Shown one piece after another: positions 1,807 through 57,392 of a stretch of 64,000 nt of DNA. The notes below the pieces were generated by a model. That model saw only the letters and a program-made list of their open reading frames with translations. It did no database searches and had not been told where the DNA came from. Source of the stretch: Jaapia argillacea MUCL 33604 (lineage: Eukaryota; Basidiomycota; Agaricomycetes; Jaapiales; Jaapiaceae). The stretch is from the NCBI GenBank assembly GCA_000697665.1, contig KL197733.1, positions 66,904 to 130,903 of the forward strand, given 5' to 3'. Each line of letters opens with the position of its first letter. The first letter of the stretch is position 1. The position numbers and the translations under genes were made by a program.

Positions 1807-4800
1807 TTAGTCATGAGGGCGTCCCCTAGAACGAGGAGCGGTCATGTTCAAGATCGCTTCTTTGGCCGATTCAATTGCGGATTCAGAACCTACAAATTAC
1901 AGGTCAGACAAGAAGGACAATGAAGGGATAGGAGACTAACCGATGATCACGATGGTGCTGTTCTCACGGCTGACTGTGATGTCTGCACCTGTTTCCAAGC
2001 GCAAACGGGCAACATTCGAGCCTTTCGCCCCCACGATCCGAGGGAAGTTGGACCGGTCAGACATCGTCAGGAATCCGACGTGTGACATCGCTTTTGCATT
2101 CTCAATGGCCTCATTGATAGTAGCCTGGGCTTTCTCCAAACCGGCCTGATCTCGTGCACGCAGCGTCCACTCGGACTCTCCGTCTTCCGAATCCTGATAA
2201 TTAGGTACGACTTGCCATTCGACTTCCGCGGGTGTCGTATCGGCGTCGTCGATGCGGGCGGTGGCCGCTCCCGCAGGGGGAGGTCGGGAAGGGACGGCGG
2301 CTTTCTGGGGAAGCGATGATTGATCTACATGGACTCCGAACGAACGAACGTTTCTGAAGATGGCCCCTTGCTGAACGACAAAATGGTGGTATTTGAAGGG
2401 TACGCGGACGGTTGCGACGATCGCCTCGGGTGTGGGAGCGACAACCTTGACTGACCCCTGCCAACAAGAGAAATTAGCATATTGGGCAAAAATGTGAGGG
2501 TAATGACACCCACTTTCAGTTCTTCAACAGCCTTCTCGCAAGCAGCGCGAGGGCCAGAGACTTTGACAATATTAGCGGCATCTACGTCGGCGAGCTCATC
2601 GGCGTTGAGAGGTGCCCCAACTTGGTCATACGAACGGGAACCAGGGAATTGTACTTGTGCTCCAGTGCGAGATTGAAGATCATTGAGATGTTGACCACCC
2701 CGACCGATGAGGGCACGGTGTTGGGCAGCAGGGATTTCAACGCCCAGAACAACACGGTCGCGTAAAGTAGCAACAGTTTTCTCCAGCTCGGCTTTGACTT
2801 TATTCACGAGCTTGGTCTCTCCACGCAGACGGACCTCATCCGACGGTTCACCTTGACGAGGGCTACTCAACGGATTATTATTGTCGGTGGGGATGAACAA
2901 GGGCAATACTCACAATCGGATCAATCCGGCCTGCATCCTGGTGTCTGCTGGTCCACCACAACGGGCGACAAGGTCTCGTAAGCCTTGACCTCCAGCACCG
3001 ATGATCGAACGATGGAACTTGTTGTCAATTTGAAGAACAACAGTCGTCTCCTCTCCAACCTGGTTGGCGATCTCCATGATAGCTGCTTTGGCAGCGGCTA
3101 CGGCCTTCTTCGTACCACGACATTGAATGGTAGTGTTCTCGTCAGAGTCCTTCTCAACGTCGATTTGTGCCATAGTGTTGTCTTTGATCTCGTTGATGGA
3201 GGCTCCTCCCCTGCCAAGGATACGAGCAACAGCCCGAGTGGGAACACTGAAGTTGATGATGTTGTTGGATTCCTTCTCGAATTCAACAGCCTAAGAGGGA
3301 ATATTAGCTGAAGAAGAAACAGAGTAAAGGATGGTGGTACTGACATCAAGTAATTCAGATTTGGCCTGCGCGACACCCTTCTTCCCTCCTTTGACCAGGA
3401 CTTCGTCGGGCTTCAGATTTTCTCGAGTCCGCTCGCCGTCGTGACTTTCACGAGGGAAAGTGATCTTCACACCATACTTCTCTTCGAGACGTACGACGTA
3501 TTTACCGCCTTGGCCAATGAGGCCAGGATGATACTGGTTGGCAATCTTGAGGACCTCCGACGTTTCATCAGCCTGGAGAAACCATTCAGCGGTTAGTGAC
3601 ACGATATAAACGAGGGCAAAGATAGCTCACGAGTCTCTCGGCTTGAGCGAGGATACGCTTCTTAGCTTCCTCAACGTTCTCCTTGCGACCAGTGATTTTG
3701 ACCTTTGACTTTTGATGAACGACCTTCTTCTTTTTCCCTCCCTCCTTCTCCTTCTCATCAGCATCGTCATAGAAGTCGACGCGCACGCCCAGTTGGTCAC
3801 GGATCCTGTTGACTCCGGCTCCTTGCGCACCGACGATGCGACCGACGAATTCACGATCTATTTCAAAATCGACAGACTGGTTGCCCAAAAGAGGATGAGT
3901 GACCAAGCTGGGCGTAGTTTGGCAGAGACTTACGAAGCTATTGACGATTTCGTCATTCTTGGCATGGTCGACAATCTGGAGAATTTCCTTGACGGCACGG
4001 TCGACATCCCCACTGGTACCACGAATGAGGATTGCATCTTCCGAAGCATCACCACCAGCTTCAGCGCCGAACTTGATGGACAAAGTTTTGTCCTCTCCAA
4101 TAATCCTATTCGCAACCAAAATGTGAGCTCGGCTAGACAGCAAAACTGAGTCCAACTTACGCATTGAGAGTGGTTCCACCTTTACCAACAACTGCCTCAT
4201 GCCACTTCTTCTCCACAGTGATAGTTTTGCTCTTGACGTCGGCCGCGTCGCGAACCATTTTCAAGAGCTCGGCTTCCACGTCCTCAAGGTGTTTCGCCTT
4301 TTCGACCGGGTTGGGAGACGCGGATGGGGAAGCGGGATCATATACCAACAAAACCGACGATTGTTCAGCCGATTCTGGGGGGAAGAAGATGCTGACGTTG
4401 TGAACTTCGTGGAATTGTTTAATCCTACAAAGCGTTCGAAGTTAGAGTACCGTCTAATGTGGATGAAAGGAAGGAGACAAACCTCTTTGCATTCTTGCCT
4501 TGAACGATACGATGAAGAAGCCAATCAATGTTGACCTCCTTCGTAGCCCCGATAAGTTTCCCCATCAATTCCGAAACTTGCCTAACAGCTCCGTCAACTG
4601 CAGGTTTGTCCCCAATAATCTCAACGTTCAACGACTGCGCACTGGCGATCAGCGACGCTGGAGGAGTGAACACCGACACGCCGGGATGAGCCTGGTTCAA
4701 CGTCTTGGGGTAATTGACGCGGGTCATATAAGTCAACAATTGTTTGGAAAGCGAAACTGGACCGGGGAGAGGGAACTCGTGGATGTATTGCGAATTCGCC

Positions 4801-13897: not shown

Positions 13898-15781
13898 GAG
13901 GATGATCGAGGGAAGACGGTTGGAGTATCTAAAGGACCCTCTGCCTTCATAAGGCTTTCAGACGGAGCTAATGTCAAAGAATGGACAGACAGATCCGAAA
14001 CAGCGCAATCATCGGAGGCGGACAGAATACGACTAAAATTTCTTGCCGGGGCGATTAGATTGAGGTGTCAAGGAAATGTCCTTCAGCGGAATGAGCCTCA
14101 ATCTACTGGTGGGGGGTGCAAAGATGATTGCCGGGAAAGTGCACAAATTGAGTAAGGTGAGCTCATGACTAACGGCAGTCAGTGATTGATGCCCTTCGGA
14201 GGAAGATATCTATGACGGTGAACCGTACGTCTCGGCACGGGGCTGCATTCCGCCATACGCAGTTAGGAACCCTTTGAAAGCGCTAGTTGAGCGTGAACGA
14301 AAACTCAGGGATTTGGCGCTGTGTCAGGCACCGAGAGCTACAGATTTGGGACACCACCCCTTGGTCATTGGCCGGCCTATCTTCAGATTCATATGGCTAT
14401 ATCGGTCCCTGCATAGTTCGGTACAGTGGACAACATGGCCAGGGACAAGTACGCGCTCCCGGTGAGTTTGGTTATTCCTTGTGTCATTTTCTTAATGCAT
14501 CGGTGTGTTTGTCGCTGGGCCCAGAAGATCCATCGCACAATAAGCCTTCCACGACATAGATTACACAATTTACTGAGTACAGCATTCCCCCCCGGGTGAT
14601 CCATTTCCTCGCGAATCTCGGACCTAAGGCTATACTCTATCTTCCCTTTTTCGACCGATATCATTATCATTTCCTTAGCGCTGGAATGGGGCGTCCTTAG
14701 CACGCGATTATCGTCCAGTCGAATGAGCGTGACTCTCGGGCGCTAATGCACTGCGACCATTCGTATGGGAACGGTAGCATGAATCTCTTCTCGACGCTAG
14801 TTGAGGTAGAACGTCCGACGCTTGTGGAGTCAACAGCCGAAAGGTTTGTGGCGCATTCGGAGAAGAGGCTTTGATGCCCGGTGGATTTCCATCCCAGTTC
14901 AACTCAGACGAAGCTATCGCACAGGCACATATCTGGCTCTCCGAGTCGCTGAAAGTCATGGGGGATCCAAGCGGATCGCCAACCGGCAAGGAGCTCTGAC
15001 AGTTTCATATCCCCATCCAATTGTCGGTCTGATAAATGGAGTAGGTGCAATCTAAGGGTGATCGTTGGCTGGGCCGTATCTTACCTCTTTTGGTGAGGAC
15101 CTCCAATAATCACCATTCTCCTTGTTCTCTTCCCTGCCCGTCCCCTCTGGCCGCCCGACGAATGCTGATCCCAACTTGTTTAGATGACAGCACAGGGGCG
15201 GGATTTTTCCTGATCTCCTCGGCTCGTCAAGACAATTCAAGATGCGCAGCTTGTACTTGTAAACATAACTCGACCGGCCCTGGGGCCCGAGCCCAAGATG
15301 GAGCTGCTTGTATCATGATCGGCGCTAAATAGTGTATAAGACCATACTCTGATGGCGAAGCGGATCGTGACCGGAGCCGTTCAGCGAGCGTGAATGCTGT
15401 ACGGCAAAGCGAGAGCAAGGCGCTATCGCTAGCCTCGCACCTTTTGACTTTCATCAAATTGCACTGACAAGCTCTTGTTGTTGTTTTGGATAGTTCATCG
15501 GAAAGTATCGAGTGAGGCACGATCAAAGCCGTTCGAGAGAAGTACTTATGACTCTGGTCGTCACCTCCATGTGTTTCTGTGAACGTACTTACGGCAAAGC
15601 TTCGTTTCCACTTGTCAACTTCTTGAATTCGCAACGGCAGCACGATGCCTGTGCCGCTGTCTCGTAATTAAAAGCGGCATAGCGTCACACTGTGCTTTCC
15701 CGAACAACACCTTGACTTGCCCTCCTAAGTTCACCACAGCCGTGGCTGGATCATTTACCAGGCCGAAACGTACTCACGCAA
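13898..15781. other. Intergenic: upstream of C2H2 factor and DNA ligase
   Basis: About 1.9 kb between divergent genes. Open frames are short and unlinked (for example 14274-14559 plus and 15227-15643 minus) and show no motif I know. Long upstream regions are common for regulatory genes. I see no repeat, TIR pair or RNA gene. Confidence 0.4.
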
Positions 15782-18700
15782 ATGGCAAAACGTACACTGT
15801 CATCCACCCCGTCACCAGTCAAGCAGAACAAGAAATCCAAAATCGCTCCGGACCAACGTAGTTTGGACGCATTCTTTGGAGCATCACAACAACGCGTGAA
15901 CTCCGGAGACAACATCGTTGCTGGTGCTAGCCCGTTCAAGGATAAGGGCAAGGGCAAAGCCGATGACCATCATCCAGGTCCCGGAGACGGTCCGCTCCAG
16001 CATGCGGAACTTGTTGACGACGAAAGGTATGCGATGTGGGTCGCGAAGCAGGATGGGATCGGCTTGGACACCATGGAGAGCCTGGAGAGGGGTTTCAGGT
16101 CTGCGAGGATGCCAGGAACACCCAGGGGTGAAGGTCCCGTGGTTATAGATGTCGATCTCGTAGACGTTGAGGGGTCGTCAGCTATTCACGCGACCTCTTC
16201 GAAGCCCAGCGACCTTTCAGATAGGTCAGCTCAGCGGAGAAAGCGCGCTACACCCCCTTCATCATCAAGTGGGCAAGGTTCATCCATTTTGCCCTCCGTG
16301 GCTCGGACAGGGACCAGGAGTAACGATTCATCAGGTGCCGAGACAATCGTCAACTATCAACCCCTCGATGTTGATCTCGCTGCTTTCGATCCTGACGCGT
16401 ACGCCTGGCCGCCGAATGCACAGATCCCCTACTCATTTTTGGCTCACACACTATCCACACTTGTCTCTACTCGTTCCCGCATTGCTATTCTCAACTGTCT
16501 GACGAACACCTTACGCGTGGTCTCCAGAGTCCAACCCTCATCTCTCCTACCGACACTATATCTCCTTACGAATTCCCTGTCGCCACCTTATGAGCCCATT
16601 GAACTCGGTTTGGGTCCTTCCCTGATCACCAAAGCCATACAAAACGTGTCAGGCCTTAGCGCAGCAGCACTGAGACGTCTGTACAATGCGACAGGAGACC
16701 CTGGAGATGTTGCATTTGCCGCGAAATCTAACGTTCGCACACTCGTCCCCCATCCCCCCCTACTGATAACCTCTGTCTACGACTCGCTGTTGAAGGTCGC
16801 ACGAGTCAAAGGCCAAGGAGCGGCTAAACAAAAGCAGGCGATAGTGGAGAGGCTGCTTGTAGCGGCCAAAGGTGAGGAGGTCAGGTTCCTAGTGAGAACT
16901 TTGTGTCAGAACCTTCGTGTTGGCGCCGTCAGGACTTCGATACTCACCGCACTGGCACGTGCTATGGCTATGAGTCCTCCGATCTCCATGACTGTTGCCC
17001 CATCCGTGGATTCGGAATATCACGCAGATGCCGAGCTTTTAAGTATGGTTGAACACCTGCGGGGACCTGAAGTGAACAAGAAGAAAGCACAGGAAGGGGA
17101 TGAATCGCGAGCGAAGTTGCTTCAGATGTTTGGGCGGGCAGAGAGTCTCGTGAAGAAGGTGTTTGTTCAACATCCCAACTACGACCATATAGTTGCGGCG
17201 CTCCTGGATACTGGATTGGACGCCCTTGCCGAACGTGTTCCTCTTACCGTTGGTATGTGATCTCTTGCTTCATTCAGCTACGGTGAACTCACAAGGGCGT
17301 GAAAAGGCATGCCTCTTCACCCTACACTGGGGTCCCCCACAAAGTCTTTGGACGAGATTTACGAGCGGCTCGAAGACCTTCCCTTCACTGCTGAATTCAA
17401 GTACGATGGACAACGAGCCCAAATTCATGCTGCAAGATCGGATGGAGAGCGAACACTTGTAGGGATATTCTCTCGCAATCTCGAAGACATGACCACGAAA
17501 GTAAGACCTCGAAAATGATCTCTCTCGAAGTCGACTGACAACTTATTCTTATCGAGTATCCTGATGTTGTCCAACTAGTTCATGGCATTTTCGAGCGTTC
17601 AACAGATATAAAGTCGTTCATCATCGACGCAGAAATCGTAGGCATTCATCCGGATACTGGTGAACTGAGGACGTTTCAAGAGTTGTCAAACAGGGCAAGA
17701 AAGGACGTTCAGATGGGTGATGTGAAGGTCGCCGTTTGCGTTTTTATTTTCGACTTGATGTATCTGAATGAAGAGGTAGGCCTTCTCATCCGAATTCACT
17801 GCTTCGACAAAATGTCCCGCTCACTTCTCTCGCTTCTGGTATAGATCCTTCTTGGGCAACCTTTTCGAGAACGCCGATCAATTCTACGTACCAACTTTCC
17901 GCCCTTCGTCCCTGACCGGAAGACGGCAGCTCGTCTGGACCACGTTCAGAGCTGTGAGAGTGAGGAGGGTAGGGAGGCCGTGGAGGAATTTTGGCAGAAG
18001 GCCGTTGATAGTCGTTCTGAGGGCCTTATGATCAAGGTGATCCCCTGAGGTTCAAACTTCTGTCAAGTCGTACTCATGTTGGACAGCTTCTTGACAGCGG
18101 AGAGGTGCTTGAGACATCCTTGACCAAAAAGGAGAAACCACGGAGAAAGCCTCTGCCGGCGACGTACGAGCCAGGTGGATTCATGTTATTTCACCTCTTG
18201 AGATTCAACCCGACTTACGATAGTTGGCGGGTGATAATCCTTCCAGATAAACGGACCTCCGCATGGCTCAAACTCAAGAAGGACTACGTTACAGGCCTCG
18301 GCGATAGTTTGGACCTCGTTCCCATCGGTGCATGGCATGGTAATGGACGAAAGGCTCAGTGGTGGAGCCCAATATTGCTTGCTCTATGGGACCCCCGATC
18401 AGGAAGGCACGTTGCCGTTTGCAAGTGTATGTCAGGCAAGTTCCTTGATATTTGTCCATTGAATGAAAGTCTAACGGAAGTTTACTTCACAAGGATTCTC
18501 TGACGTATTTTACAAAGTAAGAATCTCTACTTGACTTCTTTCTCGACACTGAGTGATGAAATAAATTCATGCGTAGGCCTTGAGCGTTCGATACCCCGAA
18601 AATTCAGATACATGCTCAACACAACCTCTATGGGACTGCGATACCGGAGGTATGTCGGATCGTGGACAACTTTCTATCTCGCCTAGCTCTTACCACTGCT

Positions 18701-19096
18701 TGTTAGGACTTAAGCCGGGAGTGTATTTCAAGCCGCAGGAGGTATGGGAAATTCGAGGGGCTGAGTGCGTCTCTTCTCCGCGTCTCCTTCGCCACCGTGC
18801 TCATAGGATCATGCTTCAATGACATAAGCGTCACCATAAGCCCCGTTTCCGTCGCTGCTTTAGGATTGGTCTCACCCAACAAAGGTCTATCTCTTCGTTT
18901 CCCGCGTTTTATGAAGGTCAGGAACGACAAGGGGGTTGATGCGGCCAGCAGTCCTGAATTCCTGGCCAACATATACCATTCACAGCAGGGGAAAGGTAGG
19001 GATCGGACAGGGGTTGATGATGGGGACCTCGTGGATGTGAGCATGGAGTCCGAAGACAATGAGGACGGTTCGGACGAGGACGATGTCGCGTTATGA
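15782..19096 (+). CDS. CDC9: ATP-dependent DNA ligase I
   Basis: Seals nicks in lagging-strand replication and excision repair. Ten exons give 924 residues: 15782-17252, 17307-17500, 17557-17775, 17845-18036, 18087-18174, 18247-18435, 18494-18516, 18577-18649, 18707-18764 and 18829-19096. A PIP box for PCNA binding (QRSLDAFF, residues 25-32) lies near the N-terminus. The DNA-binding domain follows, then the adenylation motif EFKYDGQRAQ with Lys522 as nucleotide acceptor, later EGLMIK and KLKKDY (motifs IV-V), and the OB-fold region. The C-terminal tail is acidic. The intron after 18435 must use a GC donor to keep frame and conservation, and exon 7 is only 23 nt. The last intron (18765-18828) restores GADVTISPV. 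Confidence 0.95.
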
Positions 19097-19290
19097 TCCC
19101 GACGGCTCCCCCTGTATCGATTTGTAGTCTCACTCCCATGAAGGTGGCATAGACGAGGTGACCGCTTCGAGTTCAGAGTTTTCAGTGGGCCTGCTGCACG
19201 AGCCAACACCCTCTTTGCCCGGTACCCACTGCCACCGACATTGTATCCGTCAATTTACCTCGGACTGCCAGGACAACAATCGATAAGCAC

Positions 19291-19298
19291 ATCCGTAG
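19291..19298. repeat. Left target-site duplication of the TIR element
   Basis: ATCCGTAG, repeated exactly at 19713-19720 just outside the right inverted repeat. This records insertion of the element. Confidence 0.85.
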
Positions 19299-19712
19299 AG
19301 GACCCCCGATAATCGTGGTATATGTTAGTCCATGGTCCGGACAGTAATGAGCCCCGCGCAGCGGGAGGTTAGGCGCTATCCGGACACAAATCACGCCAAA
19401 ATTGGAAACATGCCAGGGTAAAAGACCGGACAAAAATGGTCCAGTGGCTGGAAGGTCAGTCCCTCACCCGGACGAAAAACGGAACTTTGACCTTGGAATG
19501 ACCCTCCCCGCCATCGCGACCAGATATAGTAATTTTACGTATCCATGGACGGGAAAAAAAACTTAGGTATGTCTCAGGACCCGGACAGAAACCAACCTAT
19601 TTCTGATGTTAGGTGCGGGTCCGGACATATTGGCGACCAAAGTTGAGACCTCCGTCCGGACAGGTCCCAAAAAAATCCCAGACTAACCTTTACCGGGATT
19701 ATCGGGGGTCCT
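19299..19712. mobile_element. Non-autonomous TIR transposon (MITE), probably hAT-like
   Basis: A 414-bp element in the intergenic space after the ligase gene. The ends are inverted copies: the outer 16 bp (AGGACCCCCGATAATC) match perfectly, and 28 of the first 32 positions match. An 8-bp direct duplication, ATCCGTAG, flanks it at 19291-19298 and 19713-19720. Inside are seven copies of CCGGAC, all on the plus strand, at 19337, 19380, 19426, 19468, 19581, 19621 and 19656, like subterminal transposase-binding repeats. No transposase frame is present. An 8-bp duplication fits hAT or P superfamilies; hAT is my inference. Confidence 0.85.
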
Positions 19713-19720
19713 ATCCGTAG
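19713..19720. repeat. Right target-site duplication of the TIR element
   Basis: ATCCGTAG in direct orientation, identical to the copy at 19291-19298. Confidence 0.85.
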
Positions 19721-19862
19721 TGTAACTTAGAGCCCGCACAATGGTACAACCACTAAACCTTCCATATCTGGACGCGGATGAAATCCCTGCCATTATGGCA
19801 GCTCCTCTTCTAGCTCTTGACCTTGAAGCGCGAAGCCCAATCGATTTCGAGTCTTCACTAAG

Positions 19863-20881
19863 ATGACTCTACTGCTATTCGTCTTACGCGCACCATCATG
19901 GTACCTAGCTACCCTCTGCTCCCTGATGATGTTGGTACAGGCCACTCTCGCATATAGCGAGACAGTAGAAGATGCAGGTCGGTTCTGCAAACGATAACGT
20001 ACCTGCAGTCCGTGAAGATTTGCCAACCTCTACCCTTCATCGCGCAGCTCGGCTTGCCAGGCAACTCGTTGACTTGTCTCCAAACTCGGTCGGAACTATG
20101 GCGACTGTGTACCCCTCCGATCATGAAGGACTACCCGGTGAGTACGAATCCCCCTTTGAAAGATCTATGACTCCAACCGTGAGCCACAGGACAACCGTTT
20201 GCGCTCCAAGAGTACTATGCTAGGTCAGTATACGCCAATGCTCAACTCTTGAATGGAATTTGACTGTTTCTTGACACGAACTTGAAGTTGCCACGCCAAT
20301 GGCTCCCTTACCTTACTATTCCTTCCAATCTCTCGGCACAGCCAGAATATTTTGAAGTCACCTTCTCATGCAGCTTCTATTTCAATTTGGTCGGAACGCC
20401 CTGCTGCCAACCGGGCGAGAGTTTCTTTGATAGGAAACGTCACGATTTATCTTGACGATGATCCGGTCCCACAAGAGGAGGATATTCGGAAGTGCTACCT
20501 CTCAAAGCATCGGGATGCTCGTTGGTGGCTACCCGGAGACGAAGATGCCCCCCATCTGGTGATTCCTTTTCGCCTTCTATTTTTGCTCCCTATCCTCATC
20601 GCCTTCTGTCAATCAGTCATATTGGGCTCGGTTCGATCCACACGTAAGCACGGTGTTCCATCCAGCGATGATCTTGGGCTGATGATCACCGTAGAGCATT
20701 TATTTTGTCGGTGGTTTTGGAGAGTATGCGTCCGCCATTGTCTAACTGGAGTGGACTATCACTGATTCTACCTTACAGTGAGCACTACATCGGATATATC
20801 CCTCTTGGTCTGTACCAAGCGTCTGGGGTATTATCGGATCTCAAAGGCATTGCGGGAAGAGTTGTCATACAGGCTGACTAG
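19863..20881 (+). CDS. Secreted CREG-like protein (FMN-binding split-barrel fold)
   Basis: Resembles CREG1 and fungal pyridoxamine-5'-phosphate-oxidase-like secreted proteins; the function is unknown in fungi. Seven exons give 235 residues: 19863-19977, 20009-20137, 20190-20223, 20288-20558, 20617-20643, 20695-20723 and 20779-20881. A hydrophobic N-terminus (MTLLLFVLRAPSWYLATLCS, continuing hydrophobic) looks like a signal peptide. Conserved stretches are GTMATVYPSDHEG, LPISRHSQNILKSP, ARVSLIGNVTIY, CYLSKH, WWLPGDEDAPH, YWARFDPH, YFVGGFGDEHYIGYIP and Y-Q-A-S. Intron 1 as drawn is only 31 nt. The alternative is a donor at 19932 joined near 19970, which changes 10-20 residues after the signal peptide. 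It is convergent with the next gene, 132 bp away. Confidence 0.85.
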
Positions 20882-34098: not shown

Positions 34099-35563
34099 AT
34101 GTCCGACCAAAGGGACGACTATTATTATGATAGCTTCGGAAGACCGCACCGAATCACTGGAGGGGTGAATCCAGCCGGTACTTTCTCTAACATGGGACAG
34201 GGTGGGCGTCATACTGTCTTGCCTTCTCTCTCTGCAGCTTTGCAAACCTCACGTCCTTCAGGTCTGTTCTCATACAGCTGTTATCTTTAACAACTCGATG
34301 TATTAAGTTCTTTCTCAACGCAGCTCCCAATCAATATTATTACACTCAATACGGACAGCAGCCTTCTGGACGCAATGACTATAGCAACGCATCTTATGGC
34401 CAGACTGGGTGGCCATCTAATACTTGTCAGTCCCCTCCCAATGATCTACGCTGTCCGATTCCATTCTCATCCCACCGATAGCACAACAATACCAAGCATC
34501 TTCATATTCCCAGTATCCGCAGTACGATTCACGCCATGCCTCTCAGCCTGTATACTCCTCGTATCAGTCCCGCTCTTCCATCGGTTTACCTGTTGATCCC
34601 AACAATAATTCTCTAAGATTACCACCTCTTAATATTCCTAATATTCCGACCCCCACGGGTCGTGAGGACCGGACTCAGAATCCCTCCTACTCCACCGCTA
34701 CTGCCCATCACTCGACTCATCCATCGACCCATTACCCATCACATCAGACGGCAGCTTCCATCCGTTCCCCTGCGGCTTCCTATCCAGACCCTTACGCTCA
34801 TTATTCTCCTTATCAGTCTCAGACACAGGCAGCGGATGCCCGCTACATATCGCAATCCATGAATTCCCAATCACAGCGAACACCAAACCCCCCTCCTCCT
34901 CGAATCTCCTCTGCTGGGCGCGGTGCGCCTGCGAGGACAGAATCTCACGCTTATACCCCGTACCCTCGTGCACCTCCACTAGCGCAGTCGACCTCCTACA
35001 TGCCCGAACCGGAGACGCCGACAGTAGAGCCAATGATCAAGAAGAAGCGAAAGCGGGCGGACGCCGCACAGTTGAAGGTGTTGAACGAGGTCTATCAACG
35101 GACGGCCTTCCCCTCTACGGAAGAGCGACAGGAACTTGCGAGGAAGTTAGACATGTCTGCGAGGAGTGTTCAGATATGGTTAGTCATGTGTTTTCTCTTC
35201 GCGCTCAGAAAGGTGACGGTGGATGTCCGACACAGGTTTCAAAACAAACGACAAGCGATGCGGCAAAGTAGCCGCCAAGCAGCCTCGTCACCGTCTTCGA
35301 CGCATCCAGAGACGCAGACGTCCCAGCAGACTGCCGTCCTCGAAGTACCTATCTCACCAGTCGGTGCCTACAGCAGCAGTCCTACTCCTCCCACCCCTCC
35401 ATTGTCGCGACACGGACATAATCCCTCGTACATATCACGTTCCTCGGAAGGATATCATAACCTTGGCCGTAGCACTCAATCTCCTCCTGCATCATCCCAT
35501 CGGCGGGCGAGGACGCAAGAAGAAGAAAGCGAAGCCCGAAAATGGGCACCGAGAGGTTACTGA
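34099..35563 (+). CDS. Homeodomain transcription factor
   Basis: DNA-binding regulator of the typical 60-residue homeodomain class, broadly like fungal Yox1/Phx1 proteins. Exons are 34099-34261, 34324-34425, 34482-35178 and 35236-35563, giving 429 residues. The N-terminal 270 residues are rich in Tyr, Gln, Ser and Pro. The homeodomain (about residues 275-335) starts with a basic KKKRKRADAAQLKVL arm, continues FPSTEERQELARKLDMSARSV and ends with the recognition helix QIWFQNKRQAMRQ. The last intron interrupts the invariant Trp codon of that helix, a position often split in homeobox genes. A Ser/Pro-rich tail follows. Targets cannot be told from sequence. Confidence 0.9.
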
Positions 35564-55052: not shown

Positions 55053-57392
55053 ATGGCTTTCTCTGGTGCCCTCGTACGTTTCTAGCTGTACTTGTACTAG
55101 TCATGCGATCAGACAAATTGACGCTCGCCTCAGACCTTGACGGATCTGAATGACTACATTACACCTGCGCAGGCATGCATCAAGCCAGTCGAACAAACCA
55201 ACCGAATTGAACAGGATCCAGGAGCTGCATCCGTACGTACCATTCCCTCAGCAGGTTGACCCATTTGATATGGTTAGCTGATTGATTGATCATGCTGGAT
55301 AGACTCAGATTCATATCGATTCTAGTGGGTCGTACTACGAGGTCTCAACTGATACCAAGTCAGTCGCTACCACCGTCAAGAAACTAGAGCAGGCTCAAAT
55401 AAGTCTTAATGATTGCCTGGCATGCAGGTGCGTGTGGGCGCTTCTCTGAAACTCAATCCCCCCTATTCAAGTCGGGACTTGTTTCTTCCCGAACGTCGAC
55501 ATCTAACGCACCATGCTTGATCAGCGGTTGCATCACGTCCGCCGAATCGGTCCTCATTACCATGCAATCACACACCGAAGTCCTGAATTTTCTTAGTTCC
55601 AACCCGTCACCCCTATGTTCGTCTCACAAGTCCCCAGTGCTATCGATAGCACCCCAGAGTCTCGCCTCCCTGGCGACCTCGGTATCTTCCACTTCTTCGG
55701 CCCCCACGACCACACTGCACCAAATCCTACGTCGTGTCCAAGCTTTTTGTACCAGCGTTCTAGGTTTCGACCATGTGTTCGATACTACTTTTGCAAGACA
55801 CATCGTTTTGTTGGAACATACCCAAGAATTCATGGAACGAAGAAGTGGAGATAACAGTGATGGTGGTAAATTGCCAATGCTTGCAAGTGCATGCCCAGGC
55901 TGGGTCTGCTACGCCGAAAAAACACACTCCGAGATGTTGCCATTTATCAGTCGAACTAAAAGTCCGCAGCAAGTGATGGGCACTCTGGTCAAGAATTGGA
56001 TGGGGAGAAACTGGGGTAAGAAGTGCGTATTTGTCCTCCTGCCTTTCTGCCTTCCAACCCTTTACCTTTTTTCGTCGTGCTCTATCTTTGCTGTCTCTCG
56101 CCTTCGTCCCACTATATCATATATGACACACACGCCCTAATCCGATCCGCATCCCGATAACAATACTGACGATCTTCGCTTTCTGTTTATGGTGACCACC
56201 ACTTAGACTGAGCGAGATCTACCATGTGACAGTCATGCCATGCTACGACAAGAAACTCGAGGCATCCCGTCAAGATTTCTATTCCGAACTCTATTCGACT
56301 CGAGACGTCGATTGCGTTATCACAACCGGTGAATTGGAGCTTCTAATGCGCGAGAAGGGATGGGACCTGTCTATCCCTGTTCCTGGTGAAGAGGGCGAAG
56401 TTTCACCGTCGATCTATCCCTCTTCACCTCCACCCCCACTTTACCCCGGAAGTGCAGATCTGCACCCTCCTCGAGGCGGTGAAACGTTCGGTTTGAACGG
56501 AGAAGAACCTCCTGCACATACATCTTCCGCAGTCCAGATTCCTGAGTTGCTTTCTCACCCCGGGACCTCGTCTGGATCGTATCTCCATTCTATCATCTCG
56601 GCTTTAACCCTTTCACACCCGTTCCCACTCGAACTTTCCACTCGGACGGTGCGTGGTGCCGATTATGAAGAATATGTTTTGACAAATCCGGAGACGGGCG
56701 AGGTGGTATTCAAGGGTGCGAAATGCTATGGATTTAGGAATTTGCAGAACGTGGTGAGGAAGGTTGGACGTGAGGCTGGGGTGCAGGTTGGGAGGGGAGC
56801 TGCAGGGAGGATGGTGGGAGGTAGGGTTAGGAAGGTGGGCCAGAAAGGAGGGGTAAATGGAGTAAATGGTGAGAGGGAGAGAGGGTATGATTATGTGGAG
56901 GTTATGGCTTGTCCCGGTGGGTGTGTGAATGGAGGAGGACAATTGCGACCGTCGGTCCGCGCCCAGGTAGAGAAGAAGACGGATGAAGAGGGTTACGAGA
57001 GGGATTGGAGTGGAAGTGGTGTGAAGGTGGGAGTTGGGATGGACGATGGAGAAACAAATGTGCAGGGATATGCAGGGAAGTGGGGGGATAAAGATTGGAC
57101 GAAGAAGGTTGAGAGCGCGTACTGGCATGATCTGCCGACGCCTCCTGCATCACCGGCTTTGGAGTCATCCGAGGTGAAAATCAATGGACACGGGCGGTCG
57201 ACGAGAGAGGCCGATCGATATGCCGCTATTGTGCTGAGAGATCTTTGTGAGCCGGAAATTTTGAGTGGTGGAGAAGGCTTGACGTGGGAGACACACATGG
57301 GTGCAATTGCTGAAGAGAAACGTCGACTACATTTCCGAACTCAATACCGTGCCGTCGAGGGTGAGGTCATTGGGCTTGCGGTCAAGTGGTAG
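55053..57392 (+). CDS. NAR1: Cytosolic iron-sulfur cluster assembly factor Nar1
   Basis: Iron-only-hydrogenase-like protein that carries 4Fe-4S clusters and links the early and late steps of cytosolic Fe-S assembly. Exons are 55053-55073, 55134-55232, 55303-55427, 55525-56022 and 56207-57392, giving 642 residues. The start MAFSGALTLTDLNDYITPAQ matches Nar1. The N-terminal cluster ligands include Cys in ACIKP and CLACSGCITS. Later motifs are ACPGWVCYAEKTH, YHVTVMPCYDKKLEASR and VMACPGGCVNGGGQ. It is longer than yeast Nar1 (491) because of Gly/Val-rich and charged inserts near residues 430-560. Exon 1 is 21 nt. The donor at 56023 gives GKKLSEIYHV; a nearer GTAAG at 56015 would break frame. Confidence 0.93.

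What the first reader, a model, noticed from the sequence alone, without database searches (positions are those of the whole stretch)
19291..19720. Intact-looking MITE with 8-bp target duplication and seven CCGGAC repeats
The sequence shows matching 32-bp inverted ends (28 of 32 positions, outer 16 perfect), a perfect 8-bp flanking duplication ATCCGTAG, and seven same-strand CCGGAC motifs in 325 bp. Established knowledge: 8-bp duplications with subterminal repeats are typical of hAT elements. Inference: a non-autonomous hAT-like family mobilised by a transposase elsewhere in the genome. The ends do not start with the usual CAG of hAT, so it may be an undescribed family.
Basis: partly seen in the sequence, partly recalled or inferred. 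Interest (0 to 1): 0.7.

Follow-up and report, generated by a model that had tools for sequence, protein, structure and literature searches.

The report
Short passenger transposon in fungal genome
The finding is a real 414-base non-coding "passenger" transposon that landed between two fungal genes and belongs to a group of related small elements, at least one of which seems to have moved recently; it is an ordinary kind of mobile element, but which enzyme moves it is still unsettled.

Summary
A 414-bp element (19299-19712) has 32-bp inverted ends (28/32, outer 16 perfect), an exact 8-bp duplication ATCCGTAG on both sides, and seven same-strand CCGGAC. Five further families share the AGGACCCC end; one has two 424-bp copies identical at different sites, so it moved recently. 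All seven CCGGAC sites are unchanged between the window copy and a copy differing at 54 of 371 other aligned positions. So it is a non-autonomous cut-and-paste element (MITE) with repeated internal sites, most likely transposase-binding sites. It sits 202 bp after a DNA ligase 1 stop codon. Membership of hAT is not shown: the ends break the usual hAT end rule, the target preference recalled for Ac-type hATs is absent, and no hAT or BED domain was found between paired ends (part of one long copy is withheld). KDZ transposons of basidiomycetes also make 8-bp duplications and are the main rival. Verdict: a new family of a known kind, superfamily unsettled.

The parts
19291..19298 (.). left copy of the 8-bp target-site duplication, ATCCGTAG
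19299..19712 (.). 414-bp non-autonomous element (MITE), family A, window copy
   Evidence: full-length relatives of 446 and 444 bp and an 880-bp copy with an insert elsewhere in the genome
19299..19330 (+). left terminal inverted repeat, AGGACCCCCGATAATC then 16 more bases
   Evidence: 28 of 32 matched with the right end
19681..19712 (-). right terminal inverted repeat
19337..19342 (+). CCGGAC site 1
19380..19385 (+). CCGGAC site 2
19426..19431 (+). CCGGAC site 3
19468..19473 (+). CCGGAC site 4
19581..19586 (+). CCGGAC site 5 (CCGGAT in copy A_C36)
19621..19626 (+). CCGGAC site 6
19656..19661 (+). CCGGAC site 7
19713..19720 (.). right copy of the 8-bp target-site duplication, ATCCGTAG

Best explanation
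A miniature non-autonomous DNA transposon (MITE). Shown: inverted ends, exact 8-bp duplication of the target, relatives at other sites with other duplications, a repeated CCGGAC(A) motif that is conserved in place. Inferred: a transposase made by an autonomous partner elsewhere in the genome (or lost since) binds the CCGGAC(A) sites between the ends as well as the ends, cuts the element out, and inserts it at a staggered cut of 8 bases, whose repair gives the duplication. Superfamily: hAT more likely than KDZ (my estimate about 0.5 against 0.25); another or undescribed superfamily keeps the rest. The confidence given is for the MITE mechanism, not for hAT.
For: Perfect 8-bp duplications, different in each copy, at the window copy and at C24, C36 and C17 of the same family. 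Over all families, 12 of 17 inverted end pairs whose flanks were read carry a perfect 8-bp duplication, one 7/8, one 6/8, three none; two of the 12 (E_C23, E_C53) had their second end found by looking for the duplication and are not independent. Recent mobility: C_C1 and C_C11 are identical over 424 bp, their flanks not being alike, with duplications TGGCAGGT and CCAACATC; A_C24 and A_C36 are 98.4% identical. Motif: 42 of 42 site columns unchanged against A_C24, 317 of 371 elsewhere, Fisher p 0.003. Against 1000 shuffles each, both motif forms (CCGGAC, CGGACA) reach the observed count in 0 for A_win, A_C24, A_C36, B_C22, E_C23 and E_C53, in 1 and 2 for E_C74, in 0 and 4 for B_C24b; CGGACA in 0 for both C copies. 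Kat1, an hAT-derived nuclease, acts on a non-autonomous element with inverted ends 385 bp apart and a hexamer repeated six times between them (PMC4763223, passages).
Against: No transposase gene could be tied to these ends. The motif is not universal: in both D copies it is absent or at chance, in C only the CGGACA form is enriched (CCGGAC reached in 155-160 of 1000 shuffles), and the decayed A_C17 copy is near chance (51 and 38 of 1000). In A and C the CGGACA sites all point the same way through the whole element (6 or 7 against 0, except in A_C17 with 2 against 0) rather than mirroring at the two ends. Site conservation is weaker against A_C36 (41 of 42, p 0.03) and has no effect in A_C17 (31 of 36 against 243 of 298, p 0.65). 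No empty site from a related strain was available.
Confidence: 0.85

Rival explanations
1. Same element, but moved by a KDZ (Zisupton-like) transposase rather than an hAT one.
For: KDZ elements of basidiomycetes make 8-bp duplications (PMC12730594 and PMC12810828, passages). This genome has 71 KDZ-domain hits against 31 for the hAT dimerisation domain; hits are exon pieces of profiles of unequal length, so these are not element counts. The long copy here with a perfect duplication (F_C21) is 6457 bp, above the 2.5-5 kb given for hAT (PMC3942097, passages). The ends break the hAT end rule (recalled).
Against: 0 of 71 KDZ hits lies inside a pair of AGGACCCC-like ends; one lies 5.6-5.9 kb inward of two single AGGACCCCAGA matches on C1. 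The Cryptococcus KDZ ends are 139-241 bp long, against 32-37 bp in the elements measured here. No subterminal-repeat precedent for KDZ was seen in the passages read.
Confidence: 0.25
2. An hAT MITE in the strict sense, with a divergent end sequence.
For: 8-bp duplication, short inverted ends, many internal hexamers, 31 hAT-domain hits in the genome. In the mushroom Marasmius oreades, short hAT elements of 597-631 bp are active beside a 3.4-kb autonomous one (PMC9674265, passages).
Against: Ends start AGGAC, not YARNG (rule recalled): 26 of 26 ends. The nTnnnnAn target preference recalled for Ac-type hATs is absent: T at position 2 in 7 of 28 readings of 14 duplications. 0 of 31 hAT-domain hits lies inside a pair of ends; no DUF659 hit anywhere (where the controls rang nowhere either, so it proves little); 3 BED hits in the genome at E up to 0.1, none in the long copies.
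Confidence: 0.5
3. Chance inverted repeat with chance flanking 8-mers in ordinary intergenic DNA.
For: At exactly this spacing, 2 positions in the window (this one included) have an 8-bp direct repeat, so the duplication alone is weak.
Against: Full-length relatives elsewhere with their own duplications and the same end points.
Confidence: 0.01

Closest known systems
MarorhAT-4/-11/-12 non-autonomous hAT elements of Marasmius oreades (PMC9674265, passages read)
   Same: short elements of a mushroom sharing inverted ends with a longer relative; recent mobility
   Different: 597-631 bp; an autonomous 3,396-bp partner with DUF659 and hAT dimerisation domain was found there, none here; end sequences are in a figure not held, so not compared
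Kat1 target element of Kluyveromyces lactis (PMC4763223, passages read)
   Same: non-autonomous, inverted ends 385 bp apart, hexamer repeated between the ends
   Different: hexamer is AATTCA/TGAATT, ends GTATAC, transposase domesticated for mating-type switching
KDZ1/KDZ2/KDZ3 of Cryptococcus neoformans (PMC12810828, passages read)
   Same: basidiomycete transposons, 8-bp duplications (4-8 bp for KDZ2/3)
   Different: 9-11 kb, coding, inverted ends 139-241 bp
Zisupton, Dileera, Kyakuja families of fungi (PMC12730594: abstract, passages and section 3.2 read)
   Same: Zisupton and the Dileera-lineage Zisupton-1_PGr make 8-bp duplications
   Different: the two Laccaria Kyakuja families make 7-bp ones, have CA..TG termini and no inverted ends; no MITEs described in the parts read

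Membership tests
MITE (any superfamily) | inverted ends plus target-site duplication | tested here: met
   28/32 ends, exact 8-bp duplication
MITE (any superfamily) | short and without coding capacity | tested here: met
   414 bp; the only ORF of 80 aa or more that touches it (83 aa, 19182-19433, -) starts inside and runs out past its left end; no Rfam match in 18500-20500
MITE (any superfamily) | several copies at different sites | tested here: met
   family A: window, C24, C36, C17, plus a one-ended match on C15; the number is low, and a lower bound by the tool's own note
MITE (any superfamily) | ends shared with an autonomous element | tested here: inconclusive
   long relatives F_C21 (6457 bp) and F_C8 (8946 bp) have AGGACCCCTGAAAATA ends but their coding content was not read
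hAT superfamily | 8-bp target-site duplication | tested here: met
   12 of 17 end pairs perfect at 8 bp, extension to a ninth base only occasional
hAT superfamily | ends beginning YARNG, typically CAG (recalled) | tested here: not met
   26 of 26 ends of the 13 elements and 4 of 4 F ends start AGGAC; one L058 end starts GGGAC
hAT superfamily | target preference nTnnnnAn (recalled for Ac-type hATs) | tested here: not met
   T at position 2 in 7 of 28 readings of 14 duplications, both strands; small sample, and other hAT groups differ (recalled)
hAT superfamily | hAT transposase in a complete relative | tested here: inconclusive
   0 of 31 PF05699 hits inside a pair of ends; no PF04937 or PF02892 hit in the F intervals; part of F_C21 is withheld and reads N
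KDZ superfamily | 8-bp target-site duplication | tested here: met
   as for hAT
KDZ superfamily | KDZ transposase in a complete relative | tested here: inconclusive
   0 of 71 PF18758 hits inside a pair of ends; part of F_C21 withheld
KDZ superfamily | long inverted ends (139-241 bp in Cryptococcus) | tested here: not met
   32-37 bp; I do not know this to be a defining feature of all KDZ

The most novel reading that the evidence does not exclude
The AGGACCCC elements form a separate clan of fungal cut-and-paste transposons with 8-bp duplications whose transposase is neither hAT nor KDZ, served by a 6.5-kb autonomous family (F) and using a CGGACA subterminal code.
Probability: 0.15. Interest if true: 0.55.

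Novelty: new member of a known kind. Interest (0 to 1): 0.3.

Why it matters
MITEs are a common kind, so the element itself is ordinary. Its use lies in three points: a related family with identical copies at different sites suggests recent movement in this fungal genome; the conserved one-way row of CCGGAC(A) sites is a concrete prediction of a transposase-binding code; and the ends do not fit the usual hAT rule although the 8-bp duplication invites that label. It also stands between two genes, probably upstream of the second, where it may change expression.

Tried and rejected
Chance inverted repeat: rejected by the other copies. Structured RNA: no Rfam match; the strong single-strand DNA fold (z -5.4) is what paired ends give. 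hAT element at C14 (end at 813984, hAT hit at 819387): an 80-base query of that end finds no partner on C14, so the link was dropped; a like case on C10 (986805, two mismatches; hAT hit 992192) was not followed. MULE: not tested by domain; the constant 8-bp duplication speaks against it (inference). Coding remnants: 5 ORFs of the 1494-bp family E element and 5 of the insert in B_C22, none with a Pfam match at E up to 0.1; the other ORFs were not tried. Pairs at L057 (386 bp) and L058 (942 bp): no matching duplication. AGGACCTCCAATAATC at window 15096-15111: no match of the families beyond the end. A pair of matches on C3 (1055518 and 1061931, 6414 bp apart) was not read. DUF659 search: nothing, controls included. 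Literature: the string AGGACCCC with MITE and fung gave 47 papers, of which the ten listed are off topic by title; searches with MITE/hAT and basidiomycete or Agaricomycete terms gave 51 and 175 papers, of which 15 and 12 are listed, none describing these ends by title or start of abstract. Repbase was not available, so absence from it is untested.

Full report
What is there. The coordinates given are right to the base. The element is 19299-19712, 414 bp, flanked by ATCCGTAG at 19291-19298 and 19713-19720. The ends match at 28 of 32 positions with the outer 16 perfect. Seven CCGGAC lie on the + strand within 325 bp; three of them are part of GTCCGGAC and are read on both strands. The window has 19 + strand CCGGAC in all, 12 outside the element; a Poisson estimate gives 6e-13 for seven in 326 bp, not corrected for picking the motif after the fact, and no shuffle of 1000 reaches the count.

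Copies in the genome. The window is part of a 43.7-Mb, 95-contig assembly without a name; the many KDZ hits suggest a basidiomycete (inference). A search with the 414 bp gave 13 matches: the copy itself, a 446-bp copy on C24, a 444-bp copy on C36, an 880-bp copy on C17 in two pieces (an A copy with about 440 bp inserted), the two ends of a 2253-bp relative on C22, partial matches on C15, C24 (463520) and C33, and three self-inverted matches of the ends. Gaps left out, A_win is 87.4% identical to A_C24, 88.7% to A_C36 and 85.8% to A_C17; A_C24 and A_C36 are 98.4% identical. Each has its own perfect 8-bp duplication: GTCGAACT, GAGATACC, TCCTATTC.

A wider group. A pattern search for AGGACCCCCGATNATC with up to two mismatches gave 96 places against 23 for the reversed control; AGGACCCCNGANNA without mismatch gave 46 against 17, AGGACCCCNGA 83 against 59. 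So a good part of the looser matches are chance. Reading 20 regions and four end pieces showed further families with AGGACCCC ends: B (422 bp, and 2253 bp with a nested insert), C (424 bp), D (350, 362 bp; three of their four ends are slightly or not altered, one reads AGGACCTC, one AGGACCCT), E (1431, 1440, 1494 bp) and F (6457 and 8946 bp). Of 17 inverted end pairs whose flanks were read, 12 have a perfect 8-bp duplication, one 7 of 8 (B_C24b), one 6 of 8 (D_C8), and three none (L057, L058, F_C8). For E_C23 and E_C53 the second end was located by its duplication. Six single ends (L046, L047, L059, L061, L062, L063) had no partner found in the bases held. C_C1 and C_C11 are 100% identical over 424 bp at different targets; a third C copy on C13 is 97% identical and a further E copy lies on C56 (the flanks of these two were not read). 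Identical copies with different duplications mean movement in the recent past.

The repeated motif. The seven sites of the window copy sit at the same aligned positions as the seven of A_C24; 42 of 42 site columns are unchanged against 317 of 371 others (p 0.003), with A_C36 41 of 42 against 317 of 369 (p 0.03), and with the more decayed A_C17, of which only the first 371 bases were aligned, 31 of 36 against 243 of 298 (p 0.65). Each site holds a CpG. Of the window CpGs aligned without a gap, 14 of 21 are no longer CG in A_C17, against 10 of 26 in A_C24 and 9 of 26 in A_C36, which fits CpG decay in an idle copy (inference). Shuffle tests (1000 each, both strands): A_win, A_C24, A_C36, B_C22, E_C23 and E_C53 exceed all for CCGGAC and CGGACA; E_C74 is reached by 1 and 2, B_C24b by 0 and 4 (on 3 and 2 sites only); both C copies exceed all for CGGACA (6 on one strand) but not for CCGGAC (155-160 of 1000); A_C17 is reached by 51 and 38; D_C8 and D_C44 are at chance. 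I read the motif as the binding site of the transposase, by analogy with hAT subterminal repeats; Kat1 of K. lactis works on a non-autonomous element with a hexamer repeated six times between ends 385 bp apart (PMC4763223, passages). That the sites point one way through the whole of A and C is not explained by this.

Which transposase. The genome has 31 hits of the hAT dimerisation domain and 71 of the KDZ domain (exon pieces, and lower bounds by the tool's note). Laid against 79 + and 70 - end matches typed, none of the 31 and none of the 71 lies inside any of the 14 inverted pairs closer than 15 kb; two hAT hits (C14, C10) and one KDZ hit (C1) lie within 8 kb inward of single matches. The C14 end has no partner; C10 and C1 were not followed. 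The best candidates for an autonomous partner are the F copies: C21:331774-338230, 6457 bp with duplication GCACCTCC, and C8:1249528-1258473, 8946 bp with unlike flanks (GCTCCAAG, GCCTCGAC); single ends of the same family on C10 and C20 are 100% identical to the C8 ends. No hAT, KDZ, DUF659 or BED hit falls in the two intervals, but the 501 bases read from the C21 copy are withheld by the operators, as are stretches of about 600 bases in L049, L050, L051 and L058, so the negative is not informative there, and I did not pursue it. F may be autonomous, or a short element with something nested in it; I cannot tell.

For hAT speak the 8-bp duplication, short inverted ends and hexamer repeats. Against it: ends AGGAC instead of YARNG (recalled), no nTnnnnAn target preference (T at position 2 in 7 of 28; rule recalled), and a long copy of 6.5 kb where hAT is given as 2.5-5 kb (PMC3942097, passages). 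For KDZ speak the 8-bp duplications documented in basidiomycetes (PMC12730594, PMC12810828, passages) and the many KDZ hits; against it the short ends. I put hAT at about 0.5 and KDZ at about 0.25. These are judgements, not computed.

Surroundings. The element lies 202 bp after the stop codon (19094-19096) of a gene whose last 99-aa reading frame matches the C-terminus of DNA ligase 1 (best E 1.6e-9); a DNA ligase N-terminal domain (PF04675) lies upstream at 15716-17257. Downstream, a frame at 20352-20762 has a sub-threshold match to the CREG beta-barrel (24.9 bits, cut-off 27). An ATG at 19863 opens a signal-peptide-like first exon in the same direction, MTLLLFVLRAPSWYLATLCSLMMLVQATLA; if this is the start of that gene (inference), the element ends 150 bp before it. 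So it stands in a short intergenic stretch, possibly in a promoter.

Conclusion. An ordinary kind of element, well preserved, in a genome where a relative moved recently. New family as far as could be tested (Repbase not available), superfamily open. 

Noticed in passing
L044:2194-4033 (C22): Inside the family B copy sits a nested element (2203-4024) with inverted arms of 232 bp (98% alike) beginning CAGGCTCCTTAAACC, flanked by a 9-bp duplication TTTAAAACC; no Pfam match in five ORFs tried. Looks like a non-autonomous element of another, long-ended kind.
   Followed up: partly
L051:4231-4670 (C17): About 440 bp inserted in the family A copy, in place of about 10 bases; begins TGCCTTGCAG, nature unknown.
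   Followed up: no
G000 C8:1249528-1258473, C21:331774-338230, C10:610133, C20:730272: Family F: long copies with ends 98-100% identical, one with a perfect 8-bp duplication; candidate autonomous partners.
   Followed up: partly
G000 C3:1055518-1061931: Another inverted pair of AGGACCCCNGA matches 6414 bp apart, not read; may be chance.
   Followed up: no
whole genome G000: 71 KDZ and 31 hAT domain hits, many in open frames: a genome rich in cut-and-paste transposons.
   Followed up: no
window 34445-35560: Homeodomain protein (PF00046, E 4e-11); whether it belongs to a mating-type locus was not tested.
   Followed up: no
window 2519-2578: 60 bp at 75% identity to family E copy C53 (E 4e-5); possibly a remnant or a shared simple sequence.
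   Followed up: no
window 56196-57389: Fe-only hydrogenase large-subunit C-terminal domain (PF02906, E 1.9e-24), presumably a Nar1-type iron-sulfur assembly protein (name recalled).
   Followed up: no
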